Below are positions 3,925-39,743 of a DNA stretch of 43,628 bases, piece after piece. This DNA comes from a virus: the IMG/VR virus record IMGVR_UViG_3300029286_000088, positions 1 to 43,628 of that record. One strand, given 5' to 3'. How positions within the stretch are numbered: position 1 is the stretch's first letter; each line of letters starts with the position of its first letter. The notes under the pieces are model-generated. The model searched no databases, was not told where the DNA came from, and worked only from the letters and a program-made list of their open reading frames with translations. A program made the translations under genes and the position numbers.

Positions 3925-4413
3925 TTATTTACCCTCGTCTACCCAGTATTGAATTGAAACAACATCCTTCAGCATCTCTCTTAGATCGTTATATGGTTCT
4001 TTCTTACGCTCTTTACCATACAGCCAATCCAAGTACCTATTTCCAGGCGCGTCATCCGGACGCCCATAAAGAGATCTATCTGATGAAAAAAACCTTCCCG
4101 CTTCTACGTTGGTCGTAAAGGCTGGCATTGTCTCCAAATCGCGAGGAACCCAGAATACGATTAGGTTGGCTGCTGTCAATCCATAATCTTCCCATCCTAC
4201 TTGACATATGTAATCAATCTTATTATTTCTATCCGCTCGTTCAGGTACTAAAATAGCACCTTCGTATCCAAGCTCTGTAAGAATCTGAATTGCTTCTGGT
4301 CTCCAAGACTTAACATCTTTTCTTCTTGGAGTAGGACCGGCTAGAAAAATGCTGAACTCGTCTTTTCCAAATGTGATACGTTCATCCGAATGAATTACTC
4401 TTACTCCTGCCAT
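3925..4413 (-). CDS. nucleoside 2-deoxyribosyltransferase-like protein
   Basis: The N-terminal FSIFLAGPTPR segment followed by SWRPEAIQIL and ILVPE is typical of the nucleoside 2-deoxyribosyltransferase-like family, a Rossmann-type fold that cleaves or exchanges N-glycosidic bonds. FTTNVEAGRFFSSDRSLYG later in the chain contains the conserved Glu and the nucleotide-side motif. The start at 4413 is preferred because GGAGG lies six bases upstream. Reading from 4434 would overlap the neighbour without a ribosome site. It may act in nucleoside salvage or on modified nucleosides. True substrates of this subfamily are largely unknown. Confidence 0.75.
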   Translation of the reverse strand: MAGVRVIHSDERITFGKDEFSIFLAGPTPRRKDVKSWRPEAIQILTELGYEGAILVPERADRNNKIDYICQVGWEDYGLTAANLIVFWVPRDLETMPAFTTNVEAGRFFSSDRSLYGRPDDAPGNRYLDWLYGKERKKEPYNDLREMLKDVVSIQYWVDEGK

Positions 4414-4616
4414 ATATCCTCCAAAGACGAACAAGCTGCAAGTCTGCCATCTCCAGTAAAAAGGTACTTGTTATGATGCAAAAGGACAGGTCCAATTCTA
4501 CTATCGCTCCATTTAGTAATACACAGCGACTTGAAATCCCCTACATCTTTCCTCTCCTCGAAAACAACCCCCATAATAGAGAAGATACTTTTCATCTTGT
4601 CAAAATCAGTTTCCAT
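4401..4616 (-). CDS. hypothetical protein
   Basis: A 71-residue protein whose start overlaps the upstream stop as TAATG (4614-4618) and whose end overlaps the next gene by 13 bases. It contains no recognisable motif. The tight coupling to both neighbours supports it being a real gene. Confidence 0.55.
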   Translation of the reverse strand: METDFDKMKSIFSIMGVVFEERKDVGDFKSLCITKWSDSRIGPVLLHHNKYLFTGDGRLAACSSLEDIWQE

Positions 4617-6285: not shown

Positions 6286-7230
6286 TTATCCGCCGAAAAA
6301 TTCTGCTTGATCGTGATAAGTCATGCCAAGTCTTTCTGCAAATGTCTTATCTGTAGTTTGATCCCCGATGAACAGACATTGACGAGGATCGAGATTGTAC
6401 TTCTCAATCATGTAAACACCCATTCCGCTTTGGGGTTTACGGCAATAACAAGACGGAGGAACAGAATGAGGACAGGAAACAAACGGAATGTCAATGCCCA
6501 ACAAATCATTCGTCTTCTGGAAGCAATCAGTTGCATCTTGAGAAGTCAGATGTTTCTTGGCGATACCAGATTGATTCGACGCACCAAGGATGATATAGCC
6601 TTTCTTCTTCATCTCTTGAAGCTTCTCTTTCCTGCCTCGCATCAATTTCACTTCTGATGGCTTGACAGGATACTTATACTCTCCACCATTGACTTCTCTC
6701 AGCGTTCCATCGTAATCGACAATCACTGCTTTGACCGTCTTTGCAGGATCGTAAATACGAGTAAACGCCTGAGAAGTAATAGAAGCGAATCCTTCATCAG
6801 TCTTGGGAGGCTCAAACTCCTTCTTATACTTGAAGAAAACACAGATGGGGAACATATTCGGATCCTTCACGCCTTTCAGCGATTCAGGATCAAAGAAGAT
6901 CTTCCCATGACGCTTCCACATCCGATGAAGGGCATTGATGATCGAATCCTCAATGCTAGTCTTCATCCAAGAGCAAGTGATACGGACTCCTTGCTTCTTA
7001 CAGACATCAAGGAAAGGTTTGCGGCTTTCTGCTGTCGCAAAGAGGTTGTCGAGAACGACATTTTTCCCGGCGGAGATAAAAGAATCTAGCTGAGGAGCCA
7101 AAGCAGCAACGCTCCCGCCAGCCTTGTCTCTATTCAAATGCTCATATCCCCTCTGGATAAATCCCTCAGAAAGAGAGCTTTTGCCAGACGCAGGTGCGCC
7201 AAGAACCATTACGACATCAGATTTAGCCAT
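6286..7230 (-). CDS. pnkp: polynucleotide 5'-kinase / 3'-phosphatase
   Basis: A 314-residue two-domain protein. The N-terminal P-loop kinase domain has GAPASGKSS at residues 11-19 and NRDKAG after it, as in T4 Pnk-type kinases. The C-terminal half is an HAD phosphatase with VDYDGTLRE (nucleophile Asp), GASNQSG, CYCRKP and FIGDQTTDK. The kinase-then-HAD order is that of T4 polynucleotide kinase, which heals cut RNA by removing 3' (cyclic) phosphate and phosphorylating 5'-OH ends for an RNA ligase. Start ATG 7230 has AAAGGAG eight bases upstream. RNA-ligase-family genes at 9069 and 34376 could provide the sealing step. Confidence 0.9.
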   Translation of the reverse strand: MAKSDVVMVLGAPASGKSSLSEGFIQRGYEHLNRDKAGGSVAALAPQLDSFISAGKNVVLDNLFATAESRKPFLDVCKKQGVRITCSWMKTSIEDSIINALHRMWKRHGKIFFDPESLKGVKDPNMFPICVFFKYKKEFEPPKTDEGFASITSQAFTRIYDPAKTVKAVIVDYDGTLREVNGGEYKYPVKPSEVKLMRGRKEKLQEMKKKGYIILGASNQSGIAKKHLTSQDATDCFQKTNDLLGIDIPFVSCPHSVPPSCYCRKPQSGMGVYMIEKYNLDPRQCLFIGDQTTDKTFAERLGMTYHDQAEFFGG

Positions 7231-7242
7231 TGCCAATCTCCT

Positions 7243-7416
7243 TTATCTCTTAAATCCAGAGTCCTTGCGCCATTGATCTTCGGCTTCGGAGAGTTCTGCC
7301 TCTCGCTTGACTGTCTCGATATGGTTTCTCTCCGCTCTCTTCCTGAGAGTAGTTGCCCTTGTCCCGATCTCTTCGGGATGCTTACGATAAAACGCACGAA
7401 TCTTTTTCATACTCAT
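7243..7416 (-). CDS. small basic helical protein
   Basis: A 57-residue protein with a strong AGGAGG site before ATG 7416. It begins MSMKKIRAFYRKHPEEIG and is made almost entirely of charged helix (RKRAERNHIETVKREAELSE). It ends 12 bases before the kinase start, so it fills the gap between the PARP-like and PNKP genes exactly. Its function is unknown. It could bind nucleic acid or a neighbouring enzyme. Confidence 0.6.
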   Translation of the reverse strand: MSMKKIRAFYRKHPEEIGTRATTLRKRAERNHIETVKREAELSEAEDQWRKDSGFKR

Positions 7417-7434: not shown

Positions 7435-8289
7435 TCACTTTGCAAAACACACCACCTTGTATATCTCAATCTGTTTTCCAGCGCGGACAATCCATTCCTC
7501 GTGAGCAAGCTTACCGCCCCAAGCGCCTTTGATGTCTCTTGCGGCATGTAAGCTATCGTAATGCTCATTCTTCATATCCTCCATATGCTCCTGCTCTTTA
7601 AGGTCTTTGCATTTCCCCAAAAGAACTTGGCATTGAAGAATAACCAAATCCGTATATCCAGAAGCCTTGTGTATGTCTCCCAGATAGATACCAGTCCCCA
7701 AGAAACCTTTTCCTTTCCCAGGTTTCAAACCCCGTTTCATAATGCTTGGAATGTAATTGACCCAAGTCCCATGATATAATGTCATCGTTGTTGAAGGTTT
7801 GCCAGCCGCTTCGAATTCTTCTTTTACCCGCGCAAAAGCGTTTCCATAGGACGGATAATCGACAACCCAAAGCTGATTTTGCTTATAGGGTTTCACTTCA
7901 CGGAAATACTTTGCTTTCTGTGCGTTTGTCGGTTCAAGGACATCTGCGATTTTTCGCAATGTCTCCGTAAAACGCTCCAGAGGTTCATCTTTCTTTTTAT
8001 CTACTCCGCGGTATTCGGTTGACTTGAGCCTGTATCCTCGCTCATACAAATCGAGAACCTTTTTGCAGCTATCAGATTTGCAAGGGTTGACTTCAACATT
8101 TTTGCCGCCCGGGCTCACCATCGTTATCGAATAACCGCCAACTCCAGATATGAGAACAAGCCTGCCATCGTCGCGCCACTTCTTCGCGGTTTCAAAGTTA
8201 GACGTTTCGTCTGACCCAAGCTTATCACGAACGGAGAACATAACTCCGCTGGCGATATAACCATGAATGGATCGTAAAAATTGAGACAT
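7435..8289 (-). CDS. PARP-type ADP-ribosyltransferase
   Basis: The 284-residue protein carries the three parts of a PARP catalytic domain in its C-terminal half. LYHGTWVNYIPSIMKRGL supplies His173, GTGIYLGDIHKASGYT supplies Tyr202 and the following LQCQVLLG, and HEEWIVRAGKQIEIYKVV supplies Glu265. This is the H-Y-E triad of PARPs, with the same spacing and flanking residues (GIY-x-x-D...K-x-x-Y, V-x-LG, E-[YW]-IV). The enzyme should transfer ADP-ribose from NAD+ to a target and release nicotinamide. The first 165 residues are not recognised and may choose the target. Its gene follows directly after a 67-codon gene and the NADAR-like gene. The 2'-phosphotransferase KptA was considered, but the GIYL...K...Y and EEWIV motifs fit PARP better. 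Confidence 0.82.
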   Translation of the reverse strand: MSQFLRSIHGYIASGVMFSVRDKLGSDETSNFETAKKWRDDGRLVLISGVGGYSITMVSPGGKNVEVNPCKSDSCKKVLDLYERGYRLKSTEYRGVDKKKDEPLERFTETLRKIADVLEPTNAQKAKYFREVKPYKQNQLWVVDYPSYGNAFARVKEEFEAAGKPSTTMTLYHGTWVNYIPSIMKRGLKPGKGKGFLGTGIYLGDIHKASGYTDLVILQCQVLLGKCKDLKEQEHMEDMKNEHYDSLHAARDIKGAWGGKLAHEEWIVRAGKQIEIYKVVCFAK

Positions 8290-8493
8290 TCAAGAACTCT
8301 TTTCCGTGGGCTTTATTTCTTCCAAAATATATGACGCAAGGTACTCAGGATGATCTGTCGTTGCCGGTCCGCCAACAAAAGATGAATAATCGTTATCAAG
8401 ATCAATCGAAAGATAAAGATCCCCTTTCCTTATCCTATCAAACCGCGCAATTTCATATTCTTTGCCGGTCTCTGTGTCGATTATTTTCAGCAT
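8290..8493 (-). CDS. hypothetical small protein between ART and NADAR-like genes
   Basis: A 67-residue acidic protein (MLKIIDTETGKEYEIARFD...) with a short beta pattern, possibly an SH3-like barrel. It overlaps the upstream gene's end by 7 bases, and its stop codon abuts the ATG of the PARP-like gene, so the three genes are translated as a unit. No family recognised. It could be a partner or specificity factor of the ADP-ribosylation pair, but that is inferred only from position. Confidence 0.55.
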   Translation of the reverse strand: MLKIIDTETGKEYEIARFDRIRKGDLYLSIDLDNDYSSFVGGPATTDHPEYLASYILEEIKPTEKSS

Positions 8494-9068
8494 TTCAGGT
8501 AATCACTTTCCTTTAGGAAGCCTTCAATGAGCATTGAAATCACGAACGCGTGGCCCATCTTCCTTTCGGTCGAGTTTATCACTTCGTCATAGGACATACC
8601 TAATTCTCTATGATTATACCCGTCGAAATCCCACAAAGTTAAATCCCCGCATAATTCGTACAATTCTTTTAACTCCTGAAAAGCAGGAGATTTAACGACT
8701 GCGCCAGCGTAGATAGGGATATAGATAGCCTTTCGTGCTTCTATGTAAGTGAGTTTTTTGCCGTCCCAATAGGAGTACAAAGGCACAGCACCTTTGTACA
8801 TTGGATAACGATGTGCTTTCTTATCTGCCCATCCCGCTTTCGCCCACTCCCAATACTCTTGCGTGGGATTTTCGTTTTCGTCAACGTGACATCTGAAGAC
8901 CTTACTGAACTGCCATAAATTCTCGACATTCTGCGCAATAAAATCTCCATACAACTTAACTGGACCTAATAGAAATGGACTTAAAACCCTACCAAAGCTT
9001 GTTGAATGAGATGTTGTATTTATTGCGTCAGGGACATTAGGATCATTCGGACCTATTACTGTAATCAC
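8487..9068 (-). CDS. NADAR-like protein (DUF6939-type)
   Basis: A 193-residue protein starting at GTG 9068 after GGAGG. It resembles a conserved phage/bacterial family (I believe DUF6939) with YGDFIAQNVENLWQFSK, YIEARKAIYIPIYA and MGHAFVISMLIEG. The motif order matches the NADAR fold. VENLWQFSK parallels SEHYFQAQK of E. coli YbiA (shared E, Q and K), and the C-terminal KMGHAFVISMLI parallels the NADAR ending N-x-LG-x-LLM. NADAR proteins cleave ADP-ribose-type N-glycosidic bonds, including ADP-ribosyl-guanine. The family link is my inference from the motifs. Being two genes from a PARP-like ART supports a role in ADP-ribose removal. Confidence 0.6.
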   Translation of the reverse strand: MITVIGPNDPNVPDAINTTSHSTSFGRVLSPFLLGPVKLYGDFIAQNVENLWQFSKVFRCHVDENENPTQEYWEWAKAGWADKKAHRYPMYKGAVPLYSYWDGKKLTYIEARKAIYIPIYAGAVVKSPAFQELKELYELCGDLTLWDFDGYNHRELGMSYDEVINSTERKMGHAFVISMLIEGFLKESDYLKC

Positions 9069-9695
9069 TTATTCCTCCGTTTGCTCCTTTACGTTCTCTC
9101 CCAATACCTTACCAAACAATTCAGGCTTACTCTCAGCCAGACCTCTTAGTTTATTAAGCCAAGTCAGAGTTTTAACTTTCGCCATCCATATATTATGAGG
9201 AGGCTTGCCAGTAGGTCTTAATCCCTTCGCTACCACTCCCTCAATTACATCGTACTTCCCATTCCTTACGTCTTGAATAAACTCTGTATTGAAGTTCCCC
9301 TCATACACAACTTTAGCTATTCTAAGATGACCGAATGTCTTCACAAAGTCTCTTGGCGTCATCATTCCACGGCGATCTACTGCCGTATCAAATAATACCA
9401 ACTCCATAGGATCGCCAGGGACATGAACGCCAGCAAAAGAATTAGGACCGACATACTCCATAAAGACAGTCATAATACTATTTTGGCGGGAGAGATAAAT
9501 CTTGATGTCTTTGTTATCGTGGAAGATTCTTTCGAGAGGTTCTGCCAAAGTCTTGTAGAAGATTTCTATAGCGCCGCGCATCCCAGGATCAAACGCTTTG
9601 CAGCGAATACCTATCCTCCGAAACCTCTCAGAAATAGAACAAATGCGGTCAAGAACCGCTTCATCTGCCGCAATCTGTTCTTTCGATCTTCTCAT
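9069..9695 (-). CDS. RNA-ligase-like nucleotidyltransferase, motif I not evident
   Basis: The 208-residue protein shows the later motifs of the covalent nucleotidyltransferase (RNA/DNA ligase) fold: VFMEYVGPNSFAG (motif III), MELVLFD (IIIa), VIEGVVAKG (IV) and NIWMAKVKTLTWL (V). I do not find the K-x-D/H-G motif I that carries the adenylated lysine. The closest is KAFDPGMRG near residue 33. At 208 residues it is short for an Rnl2-type ligase. It could be a divergent or inactive ligase, or a subunit working with another protein. AGAGG precedes the ATG at 9695. It lies three bases from the Nudix gene. Confidence 0.65.
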   Translation of the reverse strand: MRRSKEQIAADEAVLDRICSISERFRRIGIRCKAFDPGMRGAIEIFYKTLAEPLERIFHDNKDIKIYLSRQNSIMTVFMEYVGPNSFAGVHVPGDPMELVLFDTAVDRRGMMTPRDFVKTFGHLRIAKVVYEGNFNTEFIQDVRNGKYDVIEGVVAKGLRPTGKPPHNIWMAKVKTLTWLNKLRGLAESKPELFGKVLGENVKEQTEE

Positions 9696-9697
9696 TT

Positions 9698-10195
9698 TTA
9701 CCTCTTAAACGCAAGCAGCAACCTTGCGAAAAACTCAAGCTGATAATCAAGCACTTTACCAGTGACTTGACCGATAGGGAACCATTGTATTTTACTCACT
9801 TCTCCTATCACAATCTTATTACTTGGGTCAGACGGATCAGTAATTCTGCACGTGTTGCTTTGAAAATGTTCCACTGGCTCATAATCTTGTGGGCATTCAG
9901 CAGCCCACGCCATCACAGTCTTACCTGTCTGCGGGGAAATGGCAGAACCTAACGAAATATGTTTTTCGCTAGGCAATAGAATTGTTCCTGTTTCCTCTCC
10001 AAACTCTCTCAGCGCGGCTTTATACGGTTCTTCGGGATACTCTACAATGCCTTTAGGGATTGTCCAACAATGCTTTTCTACCTTTTCCCACTTCGGACCA
10101 CCGAAATGCGCCAGCAGAACTTCTAAACCCTTCTCAGCGCGGTACAGAACGATTCCCGCGCTAATAGTAGGTTTCCAATCTTTTCTATCTGGCAT
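9698..10195 (-). CDS. Nudix hydrolase
   Basis: The 165-residue protein has a perfect Nudix box, GIVEYPEEPYKAALREFGEETG (G-x5-E-x7-REFGEETG) beginning near residue 54. The preceding GGPKWEKVEKHCWTIPKG matches the predicted NTP pyrophosphohydrolase group of single-domain Nudix proteins (COG4119-like). Such enzymes cleave nucleoside-diphosphate-X substrates such as ADP-ribose, diadenosine polyphosphates or NTPs. Next to ADP-ribose genes, ADP-ribose is an attractive substrate, but this cannot be read from sequence. The ATG at 10195 is taken as start. A GTG at 10291 would run far into the upstream gene. Confidence 0.88.
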   Translation of the reverse strand: MPDRKDWKPTISAGIVLYRAEKGLEVLLAHFGGPKWEKVEKHCWTIPKGIVEYPEEPYKAALREFGEETGTILLPSEKHISLGSAISPQTGKTVMAWAAECPQDYEPVEHFQSNTCRITDPSDPSNKIVIGEVSKIQWFPIGQVTGKVLDYQLEFFARLLLAFKR

Positions 10196-12809: not shown

Positions 12810-14963
12810 TTATCTCATCCCAAGTAGTTTTTCCAGATCCTCAATGTCCTCGATCAGAACAGGCTTGCCTTGCTCAATCTTAGTAGGCTCACCAGCCTTC
12901 TTCCAAAGGTCTTTCGCAATGTCTGCCTTCTGTCCGGCATCAGTCCCAATCACAACGTAATCAGTCTTACTGCTTACGCTGGAACCGACTTTACCGCCCT
13001 GATCCTTGACCAGATCCTTCCAATACTCTTTACCATTCGGAGGCGCGCCGGTGAACACAAAGGTAAATCCAGACAGTTTGCCAGTTTTCGGTTTCTCAGG
13101 CTCGACAAACTCAAGAAGCGCATCAAGCTGCTTCTCATTGCTCTTGAACCATTCAACCAGCGAATCGGCAGTCTTGTCTCCAATGTTCGGAACCTGCAAG
13201 AACTGATCTTTTGTGGCTTTCCTGATCGCTGCAAAATCACCGTTGAAATGATCCGTAAGACCATCTCCAGTTCCTGCGCCAGCCCCCGGAATACCGAAAG
13301 CGGCAATCAGAGTAGGCAGCGGGAATACCTTCTTCTTCTGTTGCGCCTTCTCTGTTTTCTCTCTCAGTTTGTCATTGTCTTTGATCTTCTCAGGTGCAGA
13401 AATCATATTGATTCTGGCGATTGCCAAAACTGCTTGCCGTTCACGCCATCCCGCCTTCTCAATGTTATCCTCGACCAACGTGTAGAGATCGGCAAAGGTC
13501 TTAATGAATCCGCCAGAGACCAGCGATTCAATCATGCTCTCGCCAACACCCTTAGAACCAGTCGTGAACAGATAGTGAGTAAAAGCAAGAACATTCTGCG
13601 CGGGGCAAGTTGCCTTGTTCGGGCAAATCAGATCGAGCGTTCCCGCACTCTGCCTCTTAATCAGAGTAGTGCCGCAAGACGGGCACTTATCGATGATCAT
13701 CGGTCTTGGTGACTTCTTGATAATCTTGGAAATATAAGGAATGATCTTGCCACTCTTATAGATACCGATAACTGCGCCGATTCCAAGACCCCAATCAATT
13801 ACCTGTCCTGCGTTAAATGCAGTCGCATTGGAAACGGTAGTCCCATCAATCAAGATGCCGGGGAATTCGGCAACAGGCGTTGCGCGTCCAGTTCTTCCAG
13901 TTTGCCAACGAAGACCGGAAATAGTGGCTTGCTTTTCTTCTTCCGCGAATTTCCATGCAAGTTTGCCTTTGGGATCGGCAGCAACCGAATTGCCATATCT
14001 TCCCAACTGCTCCTGAGACTCAAGATTATTGACGCTGATTACAACACCGTCAATCTCCCAAGGGAACTTGCCATCTGTGTTGTTCTTTTCAATCTCCGCC
14101 AAATCAGAAAACTTAAACGGGCGGGTTTGAACGAAAGGAACTTTCAGAACCTTATTGCTCCATTTCGCCCTGCCGATCTCCGTAGTAAACGGAGGATTGT
14201 CGAGATTGAGGATGGCATATCCCATAAAACTCAATTCGTAATCAGCGGTCTTTTTCGGATCCTTGAACTGGCGAATACCGCCAAGCGTATGAGTGCGCGG
14301 ATTGGAATATGCTTTTCCGCTTCCAGAAAACACCTTTGTCTGAAGCTTCTGGAAAACGTCTTTCGGGCATTCCAACTCACCACGAATCGTGCAAGTGATA
14401 GGCAACGGCAATTTCTGAGGAATCCCTTTAACGTACTTGACATTCTCCGTAATGATTTCGCCAGTCACACCATCTTGAGGGCGAAGACCCGCTTGCTTCA
14501 AATCTCCTTTGACATAATCCAGAGAGCAAGCAATTCCGTCATGCTTGATGGATGACGTAAAGATCGCGTCATCTGTTCCGTCAACTGCCTTGACTTGCGC
14601 GGCAGTTAGATTCAAACCCAAAAGACAATCTTGCAAAAACTTCACAAGACGTTCTTCTTTCTCTCTTTGAGTCCCATTCGCTTTCGCGATAGAAGTCATC
14701 GGAGGATCGTGTTTCATTTTCTTTGCGCCTGAATCCTTGCCAGCGGCGGACGGAGTCGTGAAGATTGCGGAATTGGCGCGCAAGGTTTTGAGATTCAGAC
14801 GAAGAACGTCATAGATCGTATTCGTGACTTGGCATCCCGTAATCGGGCAAACGCAATCGCGCTCATCTTGCGACTCATTCCACGCTTCATCCAGCTCGGT
14901 AATGACTTCTTCAAGCTGATCTGCGCTAAACTGGTCAGCCTGTTGTCTCGTCAGTGTCTTCAT
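12810..14963 (-). CDS. ligA: NAD+-dependent DNA ligase
   Basis: A 717-residue protein with the LigA order of domains. A partial Ia-like region has TIYDVL and KHDPPMTSIAKANG. The adenylation domain has the active-site lysine in SIKHDGIA (about Lys140). Then come an OB fold, a four-cysteine zinc site (CPSCGTTLIKRQ...CPNKATC), helix-hairpin-helix repeats (FGIPGAG, VPNIGDKTADSLVEWF) and a C-terminal BRCT domain (LSGFTFVFTGAPPNGKEYW). It seals nicks using NAD+, releasing NMN. ATG 14963 is chosen because AGGAGAG lies nine bases upstream. Longer in-frame readings add unrelated residues. It overlaps the upstream gene by 29 bases. Most phages use ATP ligases, and LigA is typical of T5-like and many jumbo phages. 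Confidence 0.95.
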   Translation of the reverse strand: MKTLTRQQADQFSADQLEEVITELDEAWNESQDERDCVCPITGCQVTNTIYDVLRLNLKTLRANSAIFTTPSAAGKDSGAKKMKHDPPMTSIAKANGTQREKEERLVKFLQDCLLGLNLTAAQVKAVDGTDDAIFTSSIKHDGIACSLDYVKGDLKQAGLRPQDGVTGEIITENVKYVKGIPQKLPLPITCTIRGELECPKDVFQKLQTKVFSGSGKAYSNPRTHTLGGIRQFKDPKKTADYELSFMGYAILNLDNPPFTTEIGRAKWSNKVLKVPFVQTRPFKFSDLAEIEKNNTDGKFPWEIDGVVISVNNLESQEQLGRYGNSVAADPKGKLAWKFAEEEKQATISGLRWQTGRTGRATPVAEFPGILIDGTTVSNATAFNAGQVIDWGLGIGAVIGIYKSGKIIPYISKIIKKSPRPMIIDKCPSCGTTLIKRQSAGTLDLICPNKATCPAQNVLAFTHYLFTTGSKGVGESMIESLVSGGFIKTFADLYTLVEDNIEKAGWRERQAVLAIARINMISAPEKIKDNDKLREKTEKAQQKKKVFPLPTLIAAFGIPGAGAGTGDGLTDHFNGDFAAIRKATKDQFLQVPNIGDKTADSLVEWFKSNEKQLDALLEFVEPEKPKTGKLSGFTFVFTGAPPNGKEYWKDLVKDQGGKVGSSVSSKTDYVVIGTDAGQKADIAKDLWKKAGEPTKIEQGKPVLIEDIEDLEKLLGMR

Positions 14964-15324
14964 CTTCTTCTCTCCTGATATCTTCTTTACTGTCCTTGCG
15001 CGTTTCGCCCCAAACCAATTCCTCACCATCACGCAATAAGAATGTTTGGAGTAGAAAGCCAAGTGTATCAACCAATTTATTCACAATGACTTGATTTATC
15101 GAATCAAACTCTTCTTTCGAAATCTCGTCATATTGGACACACACTTTGAAACCGTCTTCGCCATTTTGCTCCATCCATCCTATCCTAGTAAAAACCGTTT
15201 TGCTTCCGGCAGGAAGGTCAGCCGATATAGGATTATCCCGCTTCAAAACGATTTCCGCAAGGATAAAAGGATCGTCAATAGTCCTTAGTGTAAGATTCCC
15301 AGACTCCACCTTGAATTCAATCAT
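14935..15324 (-). CDS. hypothetical protein with acidic tail
   Basis: A 129-residue protein whose last 25 residues are strongly charged (KDSKEDIRREEDEDTDETTG). The body has an alternating beta pattern. Its ATG overlaps the stop of the cREC gene upstream, and its end overlaps the ligase start, so it is co-translated with both. No family recognised. Confidence 0.6.
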   Translation of the reverse strand: MIEFKVESGNLTLRTIDDPFILAEIVLKRDNPISADLPAGSKTVFTRIGWMEQNGEDGFKVCVQYDEISKEEFDSINQVIVNKLVDTLGFLLQTFLLRDGEELVWGETRKDSKEDIRREEDEDTDETTG

Positions 15325-15741: not shown

Positions 15742-16620
15742 CTACGCAAAAAGATCCGGCATTTCATTCGTCCTTTCAAACAACTTCTCACTAGGCACAA
15801 TGATCAGCTCCATCTTAATCCTACTTTTGTGAATTGTATACTTAAATCGAATTGCCTTTATCTCAGCCCATTTATAAATCTTACGGATCTCCTCACAATC
15901 ATCGTATGATAATAACCAAGGATAGCTAGTCTCTTTTAATGACTTAGCAAGACGATAATGATCGCTCAATGTAAATGAATACTGGTAAAGCTCTGGTCCT
16001 TTCTCGTAATATGGAGGGTCTAAATACAGAAAACATTCTCCATCTTGTTTCATTAGATCCATAAAATCAAAAGAAGTACATTTACCATAACGTAGATTCT
16101 TGCTACTTAATAGAGAATGTATATCCCGTATCATTTTGCGAATATGAGAAGGACTCCAACGGCAAGATATATCATATGATGAAGTCTGATGCTTACCACC
16201 TAATGGTCCTCCAGACATAGCTCCAAGTCCAGAGTAAGAAATCTGATGTATCGCAAGTTTCTTAAAACCTATGGATACAACATCATTTACTTCTCTACCC
16301 ATTTTAAGAAGCTCTTCTTTATACGCGAAAAACTTGTCTACATCTGGTTTGAAATCATCTACCATATCAGACAAGTCTTTCGGGTTGAACAGAATAGCAT
16401 TCCACAGTGCTGCGATTGCAGGATCATAATCGTTGATCCATATGTTTTTAATCTGGCTGCGGCTTTCTAGTAGCGACAAACCTACACTACCAGCGCCAAA
16501 GAAAGGTTCTCTATATTCAATGTCGTATCTATTGTTATCAAAGTAAGATGATACCCTATCTAGAATCTGTGATTTAGACTTGTTCTTCCCACCGGGATAA
16601 CGACATATTACTAGAGGCAT
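15742..16620 (-). CDS. D12-class adenine-N6 DNA methyltransferase (Dam-like), copy 1
   Basis: A 292-residue protein with RYPGGKNKSKSQIL at the N-terminus, REPFFGAGSVGLSLL (AdoMet-binding motif I), INDYDPAIAALW and LYLDPPYYE (DPPY catalytic motif IV). These define the alpha/D12 class that methylates adenine N6, as in Dam. The target sequence cannot be deduced. The gene lies 10 bases downstream of a putative PD-(D/E)XK nuclease gene, so the two may form a restriction-modification-like pair or a self-protection system. Confidence 0.9.
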   Translation of the reverse strand: MPLVICRYPGGKNKSKSQILDRVSSYFDNNRYDIEYREPFFGAGSVGLSLLESRSQIKNIWINDYDPAIAALWNAILFNPKDLSDMVDDFKPDVDKFFAYKEELLKMGREVNDVVSIGFKKLAIHQISYSGLGAMSGGPLGGKHQTSSYDISCRWSPSHIRKMIRDIHSLLSSKNLRYGKCTSFDFMDLMKQDGECFLYLDPPYYEKGPELYQYSFTLSDHYRLAKSLKETSYPWLLSYDDCEEIRKIYKWAEIKAIRFKYTIHKSRIKMELIIVPSEKLFERTNEMPDLFA

Positions 16621-18853: not shown

Positions 18854-19374
18854 ATTATCAAACCCTTAATCCCCAGCAATTCTTTATCTTCATCAGTAAG
18901 CTTAGCAAATGCTTTAAGCTTCTTCTGCCTTAACTCTTGATTTTCTGCATTCTTCTTTCTTTCGCGCTCCACATCTTCCCAATAATCTTTTACGTCTTTA
19001 ATAACGTATGCTATTATTTCTTCATCTGTCGCAAATAGGAAATCATACGGGAAGCACCAATTATAACTACAATCCTTCCCAGACATATTGCCAAAGTCTT
19101 TCCAAGTATCAGAGACTTTATATTCTATTTTGTATTTGCCAGCCAAAATATCAGTATCTATTTCGTCTCTTGTCGGTTCAAAACGATAAGCAAGTTCGCT
19201 ATCAAATAGCCATGATGGTTTTAAATAGCCAAAATGCCTGAATATAACTTCAATGATATGATCTACGCGATGTATCAAAGCCAAATGTTTGTTATGATAT
19301 TCTTTTTTAGAGTTTAAGTATATATCTACTTCTGACTGAATCCAAGGCTTGCTATTTATATCTTTAGCACTCAT
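18850..19374 (-). CDS. hypothetical protein
   Basis: A 174-residue protein with a charged helical C-terminus (ERERKKNAENQELRQKKLK). It is aromatic-rich in the middle (DCSYNWCFPYDFLFAT). It overlaps genes on both sides by a few bases. No family recognised. Confidence 0.6.
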   Translation of the reverse strand: MSAKDINSKPWIQSEVDIYLNSKKEYHNKHLALIHRVDHIIEVIFRHFGYLKPSWLFDSELAYRFEPTRDEIDTDILAGKYKIEYKVSDTWKDFGNMSGKDCSYNWCFPYDFLFATDEEIIAYVIKDVKDYWEDVERERKKNAENQELRQKKLKAFAKLTDEDKELLGIKGLII

Positions 19375-20846
19375 TCTCTATCCCCTCTAATACGTCTCCC
19401 TCTTGTACATAAATTGGATCAATCGAGCCAAGTATCTCCCTTGACATTTCGTAATACTCAGGATTTAGCTCCAACCCTAAATAGCTATGACCCAATTTAA
19501 TTGCACAAACGCCAGTAGTCCCCGAACCTGAAAACGGATCAAGAACCGTACAAGATACATTATCCTCTTCTTTCTCTCCACATTGGCAAGTAGGAACCCA
19601 TTTTTCTATTCGTTCTATTCCCCAATAAAACAGAGAATAACCTTTTCTGTCAAAATGATAAGTCCTGCCACCCTTAATTGGTTCATCTTTCCAGTTGCTA
19701 CAATGCTTATCTCCCTCTACGGAAATGCGATAGTCGCCACCATGCTTTTCAATATATTCTATAACTGCACTATCTTCTGGAGTAAGCTCAACGTCTTTTC
19801 TCTTAATCGGTGCTACAGGATCTAGATTATCCACTACGCTTCCAAATACTCGCTCCCAAGGACTCCTACACTTCGGGCAACATCCTTTTTGAGAGACAGA
19901 TGGCTTGATGCAGGTACTAGCCAGTTCTTCTGCCATAATAGCAAAATGCTTCTTTCCATATACTCTACTAGCCAAAGATATATCCCATACAGATCTCTTA
20001 TTCGCAAAATACCTACCGCATGGATCGTAAACACTTTCCTGATCATTTCTGTCATCATTCCCTGACTTAGAGAACTTCCTTGGCTTACCTGGATCTTTTA
20101 TAGGCGTTGCAATAGACATATAATCATAGAAATACTTTCCAGATTTAGACAGAAGGAAAACATATTCATGGGCTTTCGTACATCTGTCAGTCACAGATTC
20201 TGGCATTGCATTAATTTTCCGCCAAATAATGTCTTGTCTAAGAAACCATCCATCCTCTCTAAGAGAAAATGCCAGCATCCACGGAATGCCCATTATATCC
20301 TTTGTCTTCATCCCATCGGGAACAACAGGAGGCAAAGAATCAAACCCTTGTCTCATAGTCTGATCTACTTCACGATAGCCCTTATTACACATTCCAGTCT
20401 CGCCAGTTGGACCTCGTCCAGAACCTGCATAACTATCACCAATGTTTACCCAGCAAGTGCCGTCATGCCTCAATACTCTTCTAACTTCTCTAAAGATTTC
20501 AGTAAGGTGCGCGACAAACAATTTAGGGTCTGGTTCAAGACCTAACTCACCTTTCCACGCACCACATTTCTCACAAACATGAGAAGAAGGCGGCTTTGTG
20601 TTAGATCTCTTTTGACCTACATTATCGTGAGTCCCACCTTGTTTGCCGTTCTTTGTGGGGCAGAATAAATCTTCTCCCCACTCATGAGAGCAGTTAAGAT
20701 CTCCTCCCCATACTTGGGGATTAGTTTTATACGAACGCAAACCAAAAGTAAGGCGGGCTCGTCACACAGCACTGAATGCTGTCTGACGGTAGCCCGCGCA
20801 ATATCTCCAAAGAATTACCTTGAATAATCTGAAATTTCGGATTCAT
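19364..20846 (-). CDS. SPPY-type (beta-class) DNA methyltransferase, broken by a one-base frameshift
   Basis: The gene starts at ATG 20846 with GGAGATATT before it and reads MNPKFQIIQGNSLEILRGL...CCVTSPPYF, which is the amino-methyltransferase motif IV. One extra base in a four-T run (20744-20747) then leads to a stop at 20727. Dropping one T gives TSPPYFGLRSYKTNPQVWGG and continues in one frame to 19364. That part holds VRRVLRHDGTCWVNIGDSYAG, a zinc-like CPKC and LDPFSGSGTTGVCAIKLG (AdoMet site). The restored protein is about 493 residues, normal for phage cytosine-N4/adenine-N6 methyltransferases. As sequenced, the AdoMet-site fragment (from TTG 20740) lacks SPPY. Sequencing error, decay or +1 frameshifting are all possible. 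Confidence 0.85.
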
Positions 20847-23905: not shown

Positions 23906-24748
23906 CTAATAATTCATCACAATAATTTCTTCACTTTCTGATTTGCCGTTGCGGCTTACAACGTCATAATCGAACTTCAAAGACACTACATTATACTTCT
24001 TTACTCTACACATGTAAGGATTTTCTTTCCCCTTATGCTTAGAAACATTCGACATCATAAAATGTATACCGTCTTCATCCAATTCGTCAAGATAATCATA
24101 AAGCCGTTTTTCGTGTTCTTCCGACCAAGTTGTATTATATCCTGCACCTGTTATGGCATAAGGAGGATCAAGATAAACAAAATCACCTACATTCGGAGTA
24201 CATTCAAAGAAATCTTTATTAGAGAAGATAATGTTAGGATCGTTATATATCCTTCTCCAATAGCCTTTCAGCTTACCTCTTGTCCAATCGCTATAATGTC
24301 TCTGTCCCCAAGTCTGATTAAACTCCCCCTTCTGATTGAATCTCATCATATTATTAGTGCAAGAGCAAACAAGAATGAAGAAGTCAATACAATCTCTTTT
24401 ATCGTTATATCTCTTTCTTAATTCGTTGTATGCTTCATGATTGCTGTCAGATATGTTTCTTGCAAGCAACGTTTCTTCTATAGTTTTCCAGTCGTTGCTT
24501 TGGAGGAATTGGTAGAATTGGATTAAAGGGGTCACAATGTCGTTGCAATGCGTTTTAAGACCATTTCGCATTAGGTTGATAAAGATAGACCCTCCTCCGC
24601 AGAAAACGTCCCACAAGTCATTGTAGACCTTTGGGAGGTAGTTCTGGAGTTGTGGTAAAAGATCATACTTAGAACCAGTATAGTTAAAAGGCGATTCTAT
24701 ATATGTCCAAAATGGATTACCAAATACATCTGTTTCTATCTCGATCAC
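23906..24748 (-). CDS. D12-class adenine-N6 DNA methyltransferase (Dam-like), copy 2
   Basis: A 280-residue protein starting at GTG 24748, which overlaps the upstream stop (TAGTG). It has FNYTGSKYDLLPQL, LWDVFCGGGSIFINLM (motif I) and FVYLDPPYAITGAGYNTTW (DPPY motif IV). This places it in the D12 adenine methyltransferase class. It differs clearly from copy 1 at 15742, so the two probably recognise different sequences or have different histories. Confidence 0.9.
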   Translation of the reverse strand: MIEIETDVFGNPFWTYIESPFNYTGSKYDLLPQLQNYLPKVYNDLWDVFCGGGSIFINLMRNGLKTHCNDIVTPLIQFYQFLQSNDWKTIEETLLARNISDSNHEAYNELRKRYNDKRDCIDFFILVCSCTNNMMRFNQKGEFNQTWGQRHYSDWTRGKLKGYWRRIYNDPNIIFSNKDFFECTPNVGDFVYLDPPYAITGAGYNTTWSEEHEKRLYDYLDELDEDGIHFMMSNVSKHKGKENPYMCRVKKYNVVSLKFDYDVVSRNGKSESEEIIVMNY

Positions 24749-34375: not shown

Positions 34376-35334
34376 CTACAATTTTTTGTAGATTTCTTGA
34401 GATTTATTTTCAACTATGTCGGACCCTTTAGCCAATAGCACTACATATCCCTCACAATCATTACCTTCATATGTAGGCTTATACAAGCTCTTAATCAATT
34501 CCTCATCATAGATATCACGATAAAGAACTGGTACTACTTTCAAATCAAGTAGATCAGCCCACTCTAAAGTATCATCCCAGCTTAAACATTCGTTTATGTC
34601 ATTCCATATGGAGAACATATAGAAATAGGATTTTAGACCTTTATAGAATATGGTATGCTTGGCAAAAAGGTTTTCTCCGCATACTCTATACCCTTCTGGT
34701 ATATTATATCCCACTTGAGAATGAAAGTTCTTGACCCAATGTTTAGAAGGATGTGAGTCTGCTGACAAGGATCTTGCATGATAGTAGTCACGATAAAACG
34801 TGCTATTCTCTCCGTCCATCTTAACACTGACAACTACCTCTTGCCCTTCAAACTGCTTTGTATCTTCTAGCATACGATCATCATTAGTTGTCCCTGGACT
34901 CCAAGGCAAATGATATGTACGAGGATACTTGACGTATTTAGAGAAGAGATGCAAAACAACGCTCAATACTTTTTGTACTGATTCGTCGTAAAACAATTCT
35001 CCGCGCAGTCTTGTTCCATTAGGGAGAATCATATTGCCCCACTTATCCCATTCTGAATCAGAATATAGATGAGGAGGCAATACGATTTCTTCTATACCAG
35101 CCGCTAGTCTCAGCTCGTCACAAGACAAAACGGTTTGCTCCGCCTTGATATGGCATGATCCGCAAAGCGCTACTCCATTACTTAAGTAGTATCCGGAATC
35201 ATCCCACAATCGCCGCTCCAGAATGTGGTGAGCGTCTTGCGCAGGTAGATTGCAAATTGCACAAAGACCATTCTCTCTCTCTCAAAAACAGCTTTCCTGA
35301 AAGAATCTCTATCTAGCAAATCATCATTCTTCAT
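34376..35334 (-). CDS. RNA ligase with N-terminal HNH-like zinc finger, frameshifted in a GA tract
   Basis: The ligase part has VVVSVKMDGENSTFYRD (motif I lysine in KMDG), YHARS, VCGENLFAKHTIFY (motif III), YFYMFSIWND (IIIa) and CEGYVV (IV). From ATG 35334 the frame reads MKNDDLLDRDSFRKAVFERE. After a (GA) tract (35271-35283) the homologous continuation NGLCAICNLPAQDAHHILERRLW lies in another frame. Removing one GA unit joins them into about 318 residues: an HNH-like CxxC...HH...CGSCH finger followed by the ligase. As sequenced, the ligase frame opens only at TTG 35209. It could seal tRNAs healed by the PNKP. Phase variation or assembly error may explain the break. Confidence 0.82.
35271..35283 (-). 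repeat. GA dinucleotide tract at frameshift point
   Basis: On the minus strand the tract reads six GA units plus one A, inside the RNA ligase gene. One unit fewer restores a continuous HNH-ligase reading frame. Short dinucleotide tracts are prone to slipped-strand change and to sequencing error. Confidence 0.8.
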
Positions 35335-37748: not shown

Positions 37749-38101
37749 TAACGAATCTTCTCCAAAGTCAAAGATAATTTGGCTGCGTCAAGCAAGCTAA
37801 ATGAAGACGTAGTCCCCTTTCTCTTGCCAGAAAACCATTCTACTCTCATTCTGTTATTAGCTACGTCTGAGACTTTGCCTCTGGAAGACGGTTCTGAACC
37901 TATACCTCCCTTTCTTTCTCTTACTTGATCTCCGACTTGAAAAGGTGCTGGCACAGAATAAGGAACGTTCATCATATCGACTTGTCTATCTATTTTAGGA
38001 TCGTCGCCAGTGCCTTCAAAACCATTAATACCGGGATTCTCACCGGAACTAGCGTCAGCTACCTTGATCCTCTGATACCAACCTATCATTTTCTTGCCCA
38101 T
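37748..38101 (-). CDS. hypothetical protein with N-terminal GWYQRIKVA tag
   Basis: A 117-residue protein. Start ATG 38101 (MGKKMIGWYQRIKVADAS) is the most likely, with ATG 38089 possible. A glycine/proline-rich middle is followed by VGDQVRERKGGIG...RGKVSDVANNRMRVEW, a KOW/SH3-like barrel pattern often found in RNA- or protein-binding domains. It overlaps the CCA-adding gene by 47 bases. Confidence 0.55.
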   Translation of the reverse strand: MGKKMIGWYQRIKVADASSGENPGINGFEGTGDDPKIDRQVDMMNVPYSVPAPFQVGDQVRERKGGIGSEPSSRGKVSDVANNRMRVEWFSGKRKGTTSSFSLLDAAKLSLTLEKIR

Positions 38102-39743
38102 TATTGAATACCTGTTTAATTTGTCCGCGAACAAATACTTTCGCATCTTCTACAGTCTTTATCCTATGAGTCTGCTGCTGCTCAATAAGCTGCTCCTGCA
38201 AATACTTAATCCAATGCAAGTCTTTATGATTAGTAAAGCTATTGTTAATCATAAACTTATATTTCACAGCCCTGAGCCTATCTTCTATCTCTTGACTCAC
38301 TTCGGGGACCATAGATTTTATTACGTCACCATCCAGAAGAGGCTTTTCAAACAAGAAGCCAAAACCAGATACATAACTGTAATATACATATTCGTAAAGT
38401 TCTTTGTATAACCTTTTATTATTGCTGACAATCTTATCTATGTCCTCTTGACTTTGTTTGCCCTTGCTCAATAAGTCAGCTAAACGAAGATACATAATAT
38501 TACTTTCCACTTCAGGGAAATCTCGCAGAAACTTGCCAAATTGCCTTCTTAAAGCAGAACCGTTTTTACCATCAAAAGATGATGGGCGCATATGCCCTTT
38601 GACTATGGCAACTATGTTTTTTCTCATCTGCTCTGGGAAAGACATTTTGATAAGTAGATTATTGATAAACTCAGCAGAAACATCTTCGTGATTGATATAT
38701 TGCATTTTGCCAGGATGCTTAGGATGTTCTTTGCGTATGTCGGGACTCATTTTTCCAAAGTCATGAAAAATAGCGGCAAATAGAAACTCAGCTCTAGAGT
38801 CACCGATAATCCAGTGATCTTCCGCTATCTTTATTGCCTCTTTCAATACAGATAAGGTATGATCAATTAAAGTTAGATTATGATACGGACTCAATTGATC
38901 CATATCAAAAGGAAACCAATTATCAGGAACTTCAAAAACTCTCTTATAGAAACCAGATCTGAATAGAATATATATCGCCCTTTCAGGGTTGTCAGACTCC
39001 ATTATTTTGATAAGCTCTTTTGCCGCTCTAGAAGTAGCAACCTTCTGCCTATAAAGTATAGACAAAGAAGAATTGTCATCGTCCATAGACGCGAGAGACT
39101 TCAATATGCCTGTATCCAAAGTCGATCCCGGAAACTTCGCATAAAACCTTATCGCCCTCAAAAGTCGCAAAGGATCTTCTGCATATGTCTTTTCTGGCTC
39201 GTCTGGAGTTCTAAGATGCATCACTTCCAAATCTTTCAAACCGCCAACATAATCCTCAACCTCGCCAGTTAAGACATTATAGTACAAGGCATTAATCGTC
39301 AAATCTCTGCGCTTGACGTCTTCCAATACATTATCTGTGGCAACGATTTGTGGAGTTCTCGAATCATCCGTATAGATTTCCTTACGGAGACCAATAAACT
39401 CGACCTTCAAGCCGAAAATGTCCATGCCTCCCACTTGGAGTGGGTCAATTGCTTTCTTCTCTTTCGGGTCTGCAACCTTGTCCAAACTGACTTGATAAGG
39501 ATCACTTACGCCATCAATATGATTCTTTTTGGCGTATTGAGAAATCTTTTTGGCGAAAGCATAACCTGTGATGTGATTGACTGTAATGTCAAGATCATCG
39601 CTTTCTCTGCCCAAAATCTTATCGCGTACCCATCCACCGCAAATGCGCGGTTCTACGAGACTGAGAGATGAATCCGCGGAGATAACCCCGCGAATCAAAT
39701 CAAAGATTTTTTGCTCTGTATTGTTCAGCTTGATTTCTTGCAT
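38055..39743 (-). CDS. cca: CCA tRNA nucleotidyltransferase (poly(A) polymerase family) with HD domain
   Basis: A 562-residue class II nucleotidyltransferase. RICGGWVRDKILGRESDDLDITV (GG...DDLDI, metal-binding Asp pair), VKRRDLTINALYYNV, YAEDPLRLLRAIRF and FHDFGKMSPD (HD motif, near residue 326) are all visible. The enzyme adds or repairs the 3' CCA end of tRNA. With PNKP and RNA ligases it supports a tRNA maintenance programme. It is larger than many bacterial homologues because of the HD region and a helical C-terminus. AAAGGAG precedes the ATG. Confidence 0.92.
   Translation of the reverse strand: MQEIKLNNTEQKIFDLIRGVISADSSLSLVEPRICGGWVRDKILGRESDDLDITVNHITGYAFAKKISQYAKKNHIDGVSDPYQVSLDKVADPKEKKAIDPLQVGGMDIFGLKVEFIGLRKEIYTDDSRTPQIVATDNVLEDVKRRDLTINALYYNVLTGEVEDYVGGLKDLEVMHLRTPDEPEKTYAEDPLRLLRAIRFYAKFPGSTLDTGILKSLASMDDDNSSLSILYRQKVATSRAAKELIKIMESDNPERAIYILFRSGFYKRVFEVPDNWFPFDMDQLSPYHNLTLIDHTLSVLKEAIKIAEDHWIIGDSRAEFLFAAIFHDFGKMSPDIRKEHPKHPGKMQYINHEDVSAEFINNLLIKMSFPEQMRKNIVAIVKGHMRPSSFDGKNGSALRRQFGKFLRDFPEVESNIMYLRLADLLSKGKQSQEDIDKIVSNNKRLYKELYEYVYYSYVSGFGFLFEKPLLDGDVIKSMVPEVSQEIEDRLRAVKYKFMINNSFTNHKDLHWIKYLQEQLIEQQQTHRIKTVEDAKVFVRGQIKQVFNNGQENDRLVSEDQGS

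What the first reader, a model, noticed from the sequence alone, without database searches (positions are those of the whole stretch)
7435..9068. Possible ADP-ribosylation writer/eraser cassette: PARP-like ART, 67-residue protein, NADAR-like protein
Three co-translated genes encode an ART, a small unknown protein and a protein whose ENLWQFSK, IEARKAIYIPIYA and MGHAFVISML motifs follow the NADAR fold. NADAR proteins remove ADP-ribose from nucleobases. The set could be a phage toxin-antitoxin-like unit, a regulator of host or phage DNA/RNA by reversible ADP-ribosylation, or a counter to host DarT-like defence. I know of no described PARP + NADAR phage cassette.
Basis: partly seen in the sequence, partly recalled or inferred. 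Interest (0 to 1): 0.85.

Follow-up and report, generated by a model that had tools for sequence, protein, structure and literature searches.

The report
Phage ADP-ribosylation writer and eraser genes
A giant-phage DNA fragment carries, side by side, a gene for an enzyme that attaches ADP-ribose and a gene for a likely ADP-ribose remover, within a run of DNA/RNA-repair genes; this exact pair is seen in no other genome found, but related giant phages carry a strongly conserved PARP, macrodomain and NADAR gene set that appears not to have been described.

Summary
On the minus strand, 9068-7435 encodes a NADAR-like protein, a 67-residue orphan and a PARP-type ADP-ribosyltransferase (ART), with touching or overlapping genes. 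The ART passes Pfam's PARP cut-off and keeps H173-Y202-E265. The NADAR-like protein is DUF6939. It misses NADAR family models by sequence, but its confident fold model (pLDDT 97) has NADAR structures as its two best PDB matches, and it keeps the E-x-x-(aromatic)-Q-x-x-K motif plus a D-x-D that may supply the catalytic acid.

DUF6939 is common in jumbo phages and usually not next to an ART. Only three members of this ART subfamily were found; one other lies 1.3 kb from DUF6939, on the opposite strand. Flanking genes (Nudix, ligase-like, PNKP; NAD+-ligase 4.5 kb upstream) suggest nucleic-acid end repair more than a toxin-antitoxin pair.

The larger finding lies outside the window. Related jumbo phages carry a collinear NAD+-DNA ligase, WGR-PARP, macrodomain, canonical NADAR series. 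Of 45 PARP loci, 30 have the ligase, 27 the macrodomain and 25 a NADAR within 8 kb, same strand. I found no description of it. Function is inferred, not shown.

The parts
7435..8289 (-). PARP-type ADP-ribosyltransferase (ARTD, H173-Y202-E265), 284 aa; catalytic domain about 130-284; N-terminal 1-130 without known relatives; no WGR domain detected by Pfam
   Evidence: PF00644 E 1e-8 over cut-off; PARP4 alignment; triad in register with phage PARPs; relatives L018, L010 only; AF2 model unusable, pLDDT 35
8290..8493 (-). 67-aa orphan protein between eraser and writer; function unknown
   Evidence: no match in Pfam, NCBIfam, PADLOC or IMG/VR; weak PHROG hit E 0.04 only
8487..9068 (-). DUF6939 protein, NADAR-like fold; predicted ADP-ribosyl hydrolase; candidate active-site residues E49, K56, R87, W101, R112, D147/D149
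   Evidence: PF22075; AF2 pLDDT 97.4; Foldseek PDB top hits NADAR 8bat and YbiA 2b3w; conservation in 69 relatives
9069..9695 (-). RNA-ligase-like protein that lacks motif I (KxDG), probably not an active ligase by itself
   Evidence: PHROG 548 RNA ligase E 1e-6; homologues L037 and L041 keep KxDG, window copy does not
9698..10195 (-). Nudix hydrolase with intact Nudix box (the ORF can start further upstream)
   Evidence: PF00293 E 1e-11; Nudix box GIVEYPEEPYKAALREFGEETG
7243..7416 (-). 57-aa small ORF between ART and PNKP, AGGAGG upstream of its ATG
   Evidence: sequence; no family above cut-off
6286..7236 (-). Polynucleotide 5'-kinase / 3'-phosphatase (PNKP-like)
   Evidence: TIGR01663 E 2e-24, below the equivalog cut-off; mammalian PNKP structures E 2e-19; P-loop and HAD motif
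12810..15071 (-). NAD+-dependent DNA ligase, 4.5 kb upstream of the ART on the same strand; in related phages an NAD+ ligase precedes the PARP series
   Evidence: (DNA_ligase_aden E 1.5e-30); comparison
34376..35209 (-). RNA ligase; its homologue is the gene next to the ART in L010
   Evidence: PF09414 E 2e-28; homologue L010:7209-7862

Best explanation
The genes form a small NAD+-fed ADP-ribosylation unit inside a nucleic-acid end-healing operon of a jumbo phage. The PARP-type ART attaches ADP-ribose to nucleic acid (DNA or RNA ends or bases) or to a protein at nucleic-acid ends; the DUF6939 protein, a divergent NADAR-fold hydrolase, removes ADP-ribose from a base-type (N-glycosidic) adduct; the Nudix enzyme may clear the freed ADP-ribose; PNKP and the phage's ligases restore ends. 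Shown: domain identities, conserved catalytic-type residues, predicted fold, gene contiguity, and that related jumbo phages keep a PARP-macrodomain-NADAR series behind an NAD+ DNA ligase. Inferred: substrate, direction of each reaction, and that writer and eraser act on the same mark.
For: PARP family and triad. NADAR fold of DUF6939 with E/Q/K and D-x-D conservation. Contiguous genes Nudix, ligase-like, DUF6939, 67 aa, ART, 57 aa, PNKP. A second ART relative sits 42 bp upstream of an RNA ligase and 1.3 kb from DUF6939. DUF6939 elsewhere neighbours ADP-ribose/NAD genes: ADP-ribosylglycohydrolase in 7 loci, NadV in 4, and single cases of sirtuin, canonical NADAR, SLOG and an overlapping Nudix gene. 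In the PARP-based sample of 45 phage loci: NAD+ ligase 30, macrodomain 27, canonical NADAR 25 on the same strand, PARP/Macro/NADAR proteins 49-82% identical across genomes. Phage PARPs also lie next to ATP-type DNA ligases in LR756511 and Cellulophaga phage phi4:1. Precedent: D. radiodurans ligase-PARG-PNK operon (PMC11833690).
Against: Direct ART-DUF6939 adjacency seen only here; no other of about 80 DUF6939 loci has this ART next to it. DUF6939 mostly stands in unrelated contexts. The window ART has no detectable WGR domain, so the DNA-break argument from the long PARPs does not transfer directly. The ligase-like gene lacks motif I. In the literature NADARs act on guanine adducts and not on phosphate-end ADP-ribose (PMC11833690), so PARP end-modification would not be their substrate. 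The conserved series may reflect one phage clade. No biochemistry.
Confidence: 0.45

Rival explanations
1. Two independent tools that happen to be neighbours: the ART modifies host targets for takeover (as T4 Alt/Mod do), while DUF6939 is a stand-alone counter-defence hydrolase against host ADP-ribosylation (for example DarT1-type guanine marks) or soluble ADP-ribose derivatives.
For: DUF6939 occurs without a neighbouring ART in nearly all jumbo phages found; phage T4 NADAR hydrolyses guanosine-ADPr in vitro (PMC11125620); Iyer et al. argue that phage NADARs counter host ADP-ribose signals (PMC9503650).
Against: Tight gene coupling in this window; another ART relative also near DUF6939; the one tested phage NADAR (T4) did not rescue E. 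coli from DarT1 (PMC11125620).
Confidence: 0.33
2. Toxin-antitoxin or superinfection-exclusion pair: ART toxin, DUF6939 antitoxin (with or without the 67-aa protein).
For: DarT1-NADAR and YarT-YbiA are proven ART-NADAR toxin-antitoxin pairs in bacteria (PMC11543638, PMC11125620); eraser gene precedes writer gene, as in YbiA-YarT.
Against: No conserved pairing outside this genome; genes sit in a long phage run with repair enzymes, no dedicated unit seen; no PADLOC match.
Confidence: 0.12
3. RNA-repair unit in which the ART does a KptA/Tpt1-like job on RNA 2'-phosphates and DUF6939/Nudix clear the by-product.
For: RNA ligase beside the L010 ART, PNKP and ligase-like genes in the window, tRNA nucleotidyltransferase at 38055-39743; weak Tpt1 hits E 0.015-0.09; annotated RNA 2'-phosphotransferase about 5 kb from DUF6939 in Yersinia phage fHe-Yen9-02.
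Against: PARP model scores far better and the triad is H-Y-E, not the H-H-h pattern given for KptA-type ARTs in PMC9503650.
Confidence: 0.07

Closest known systems
DarT1-NADAR (DarTG1) toxin-antitoxin
   Same: ARTD-type ART encoded beside a NADAR-fold hydrolase; DUF6939's best PDB match is a DarT1-associated NADAR (8bat)
   Different: ART here is PARP-type by profile; DUF6939 misses the NADAR-DarT1 cut-off; phage repair context; no evidence of toxicity
YarT-YbiA (myxobacteria, PMC11125620)
   Same: non-DarT ART next to a NADAR-superfamily hydrolase, hydrolase gene first
   Different: YarT is a small HYD1/Rhs-type ART; YbiA is canonical NADAR (PF08719); bacterial
D. radiodurans DRB0100-DRB0099-DRB0098 operon (ligase, PARG, PNK/phosphatase; PMC11833690)
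   Same: ligase + ADP-ribose hydrolase + polynucleotide kinase/phosphatase in one operon
   Different: eraser is a PARG macrodomain, no ART in the operon; window ligase-like gene lacks motif I
Phage NADAR/ART early-gene sets of T4-like phages (PMC9503650)
   Same: phage-encoded ARTs and NADARs in early regions; PARPs and NADARs reported separately in jumbo phages (PMC7824862)
   Different: passages read do not describe a PARP-macrodomain-NADAR series behind a ligase, nor DUF6939; figures and supplements not seen
Phage PARPs (Klebsiella FBKp34, Xanthomonas XacN1, Cellulophaga phi4:1)
   Same: PARP catalytic domain, H-Y-E triad in the phage PARPs aligned
   Different: those are about 380-430 aa with WGR and regulatory domains where annotated; window ART lacks both by Pfam

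Membership tests
PARP / ARTD | PARP catalytic-domain profile match over curated cut-off | tested here: met
   PF00644 35.3 bits vs 26.7
PARP / ARTD | H-Y-E catalytic triad | tested here: met
   H173, Y202, E265 in register with 7 phage PARPs
PARP / ARTD | ART fold | tested here: inconclusive
   AF2 model with 3 sequences, pLDDT 35
DNA-repair PARP (PARP1-3-like) | WGR and helical regulatory domain | tested here: not met
   no WGR or PARP_reg match in the window ART; present in L152 PARP
NADAR superfamily | sequence match to PF08719 or NADAR-DarT1 over cut-off | tested here: not met
   PF08719 none; PF22397 E 0.048, 13.5 bits vs cut-off 27; hhalign to canonical NADARs aligns only the motif, probability 3%
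NADAR superfamily | NADAR fold | tested here: met
   top PDB matches 8bat (prob 1.00, E 2e-3) and 2b3w (prob 0.63); TM only 0.42-0.46, so a divergent version
NADAR superfamily | E and K seven residues apart, binding distal ribose/phosphate (E43/K50 in P. nicotianae) | tested here: met
   E49/K56 in 68 and 67 of 69 DUF6939 proteins; residues from PMC11543638
NADAR superfamily | catalytic acid or histidine near the C-terminal strand (E, D or H) | tested here: inconclusive
   D147 and D149 near-invariant but not superposed residue by residue
NADAR superfamily | guanine-ADP-ribose hydrolase activity | not testable with these tools
   needs biochemistry
ART-NADAR toxin-antitoxin | conserved two-gene pairing | tested here: not met
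   direct adjacency in no other of about 80 DUF6939 loci; one loose, opposite-strand case
ART-NADAR toxin-antitoxin | toxicity neutralised by partner | not testable with these tools
   needs expression test

The most novel reading that the evidence does not exclude
Jumbo phages carry their own reversible nucleic-acid ADP-ribosylation and strand-break repair system: NAD+ ligase, WGR-PARP writer, macrodomain and NADAR erasers in one series, with NadV, DUF6939 and ADP-ribosylglycohydrolase about 11 kb away in some members. The window would be a rearranged version with a shortened PARP and a DUF6939 eraser, a phage counterpart of eukaryotic PARP-PNKP-ligase break repair.
Probability: 0.25. Interest if true: 0.85.

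Novelty: new variant of a known kind. Interest (0 to 1): 0.6.

Why it matters
[quoted passage not shown] A phage-encoded writer with dedicated erasers, repeatedly kept beside a DNA ligase, would show that phages use the mark for their own biology, and gives a defined gene set in which to test it. It would also give DUF6939, a Pfam family without function, a predicted activity (ADP-ribose removal).

Tried and rejected
Chance ORF explanation: rejected (family matches, conservation). KptA/Tpt1 identity for the ART: rejected on scores and triad. Close relatives of the ART by single-sequence scan, phage and plasmid tblastn: none; alignment scans gave only L018 and L010/L019 as real relatives (six short local hits L020-L025 not followed). 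Structure of the ART: failed with 3 sequences. Sequence-only proof that DUF6939 is NADAR: failed; the fold search settled the likely relation. Relatives of the 67-aa protein: none. An ART-like gene near DUF6939 in G063 (L225) has an LYHGT motif but is only a weak match (E 0.0028) and lacks the PARP pattern; not counted. Bacterial DUF6939 copies (7 found) show no ART beside them by motif scan; some may be phage sequence.

Full report
What is there. The window is a 43.6-kb virus record of jumbo-phage type gene content. Near the flagged place all main genes read on the minus strand and touch or overlap: Nudix (9698-10195), ligase-like (9069-9695), DUF6939 (8487-9068), 67 aa (8290-8493), ART (7435-8289), 57 aa (7243-7416), PNKP (6286-7236). 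An NAD+-dependent DNA ligase lies 4.5 kb upstream of the ART (12810-15071).

The ART. Pfam PARP E 1.1e-8, over its cut-off; best solved relative human PARP4. H173, Y202 and E265 align with the triad of full phage PARPs. It lacks WGR and regulatory domains by Pfam, and its first 130 residues have no known relative. Its fold could not be modelled. Only two relatives of this subfamily were found: L018 (536-kb phage, which also has DUF6939, about 345 kb away) and L010/L019 (48-kb contig), where the ART is 42 bp upstream of an RNA ligase and 1.3 kb from DUF6939, on the opposite strand. All three ART-bearing contigs thus have DUF6939, but the first two were found through it, so this is weak evidence.

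The NADAR-like protein. By sequence it is DUF6939 (E 3e-6) with a sub-threshold NADAR-DarT1 hit; profile comparison with canonical NADARs aligns only the LSPF...ENxWQxSK segment to LSNF...EHYFQAQK. The model (pLDDT 97.4, 69 sequences) finds Geobacter lovleyi NADAR and E. coli YbiA as the best PDB matches, though with TM scores of only 0.42-0.46; in the viral library the closest are unnamed giant-virus proteins (TM up to 0.79), then NADARs. E49, Q53, K56, R87, W101, R112, D147 and D149 are near-invariant; E and K seven apart correspond to the ADP-ribose-contacting pair in NADAR structures (PMC11543638). I take it as a divergent member of the NADAR fold group; catalytic membership is untested.

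Context of DUF6939. It was found in 64 phage records and about 85 IMG/VR loci; about 80 neighbourhoods were compared. Neighbours are mostly varied, but recur as ADP-ribosylglycohydrolase (7 loci), NadV (4 loci) and tandem DUF6939 copies, with single cases of sirtuin, canonical NADAR, SLOG and a Nudix gene overlapping its start in Lacrimispora. None of the others has this ART beside it.

The conserved series in related phages. Searching 50 DUF6939-bearing records for PARP and NADAR families found PARP in 17 and canonical NADAR in 24, several 1-3 kb apart on the same strand. Reading these regions showed NAD+ ligase, PARP (WGR + regulatory + catalytic), a DarG-leaning macrodomain (DarG models E 7e-6 and 7e-4, Pfam Macro E 0.09) and canonical NADAR. 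To remove the DUF6939 condition, PARPs were searched directly: of 45 loci, 30 have the ligase, 27 the macrodomain and 25 a NADAR within 8 kb, in the same order and on the same strand. PARP, macrodomain and NADAR proteins are 66-82%, 49-74% and 51-72% identical between genomes. Of 35 larger PARP contigs, 17 also hold DUF6939. These loci are related phages, a few are near-duplicates and many contigs are fragments, so counts are not independent events. More distant phage PARPs in LR756511 and Cellulophaga phage phi4:1 lie one to three genes from an ATP-type DNA ligase, while Klebsiella and Xanthomonas phage PARPs show no annotated eraser beside them.

Mechanism. I favour a nucleic-acid-directed ADP-ribosylation writer with an eraser, placed in an end-healing operon (confidence 0.45); the strongest rival is that the two enzymes work separately, DUF6939 as counter-defence (0.33). 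Toxin-antitoxin pairing is possible but has no support beyond analogy (0.12). NADARs tested so far act on guanine adducts and not on phosphate ends or uracil (PMC11833690, PMC13036486), which limits any simple end-modification model.

Known systems. DarT1-NADAR and YarT-YbiA show that ART + NADAR pairs exist in bacteria. The D. radiodurans ligase-PARG-PNK operon is the nearest cellular parallel to the window's gene mix. Jumbo-phage PARPs and NADARs have been reported separately. Paper searches gave no account of a PARP-macrodomain-NADAR phage series; the library is open-access only and figures and supplements were not read, so novelty is provisional. From memory and unchecked, I recall a 2025 report of phage NADARs countering DarTG1; a search for it found nothing in the library.

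Verdict. Observation confirmed; interpretation partly supported; new variant of a known kind; interest 0.6, chiefly for the conserved series and for giving DUF6939 a testable activity.

Noticed in passing
L156:5974-8723 (G041, 80-kb phage contig); an isocitrate-lyase homologue also in L157 and L158: A jumbo-phage contig encodes adjacent malate synthase and isocitrate lyase, i.e. a glyoxylate-shunt pair, next to a second PARP gene (homologues by clustering).
   Followed up: partly
L225:4222-10387, minus strand (G063, 435-kb phage contig): A run of more than ten consecutive small ORFs of unlike sequence almost all end in the same tail, (D)E-L-M-I-K-D-I-I-E or a variant; DUF6939 lies within this run without the tail.
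   Followed up: no
L178:7353-8501 (LR756511): An ATP-type DNA ligase three genes after a phage PARP begins with about 95 residues outside the ligase domain that look WGR-like by eye; Pfam gives no WGR match.
   Followed up: no
window 3925-4434 and L165:8544-9029: Nucleoside 2-deoxyribosyltransferase-like proteins (PF15891) in the window and, homologous, next to a phage PARP.
   Followed up: no
window 15742-16620, 19364-20740, 23906-24748: Three DNA methyltransferase genes within 9 kb.
   Followed up: no
BFVD matches of the DUF6939 model: Uncharacterised proteins of Pithovirus, Marseillevirus and Megaviridae relatives share the fold at 18-28% identity, suggesting DUF6939-like proteins in giant eukaryotic viruses.
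   Followed up: no
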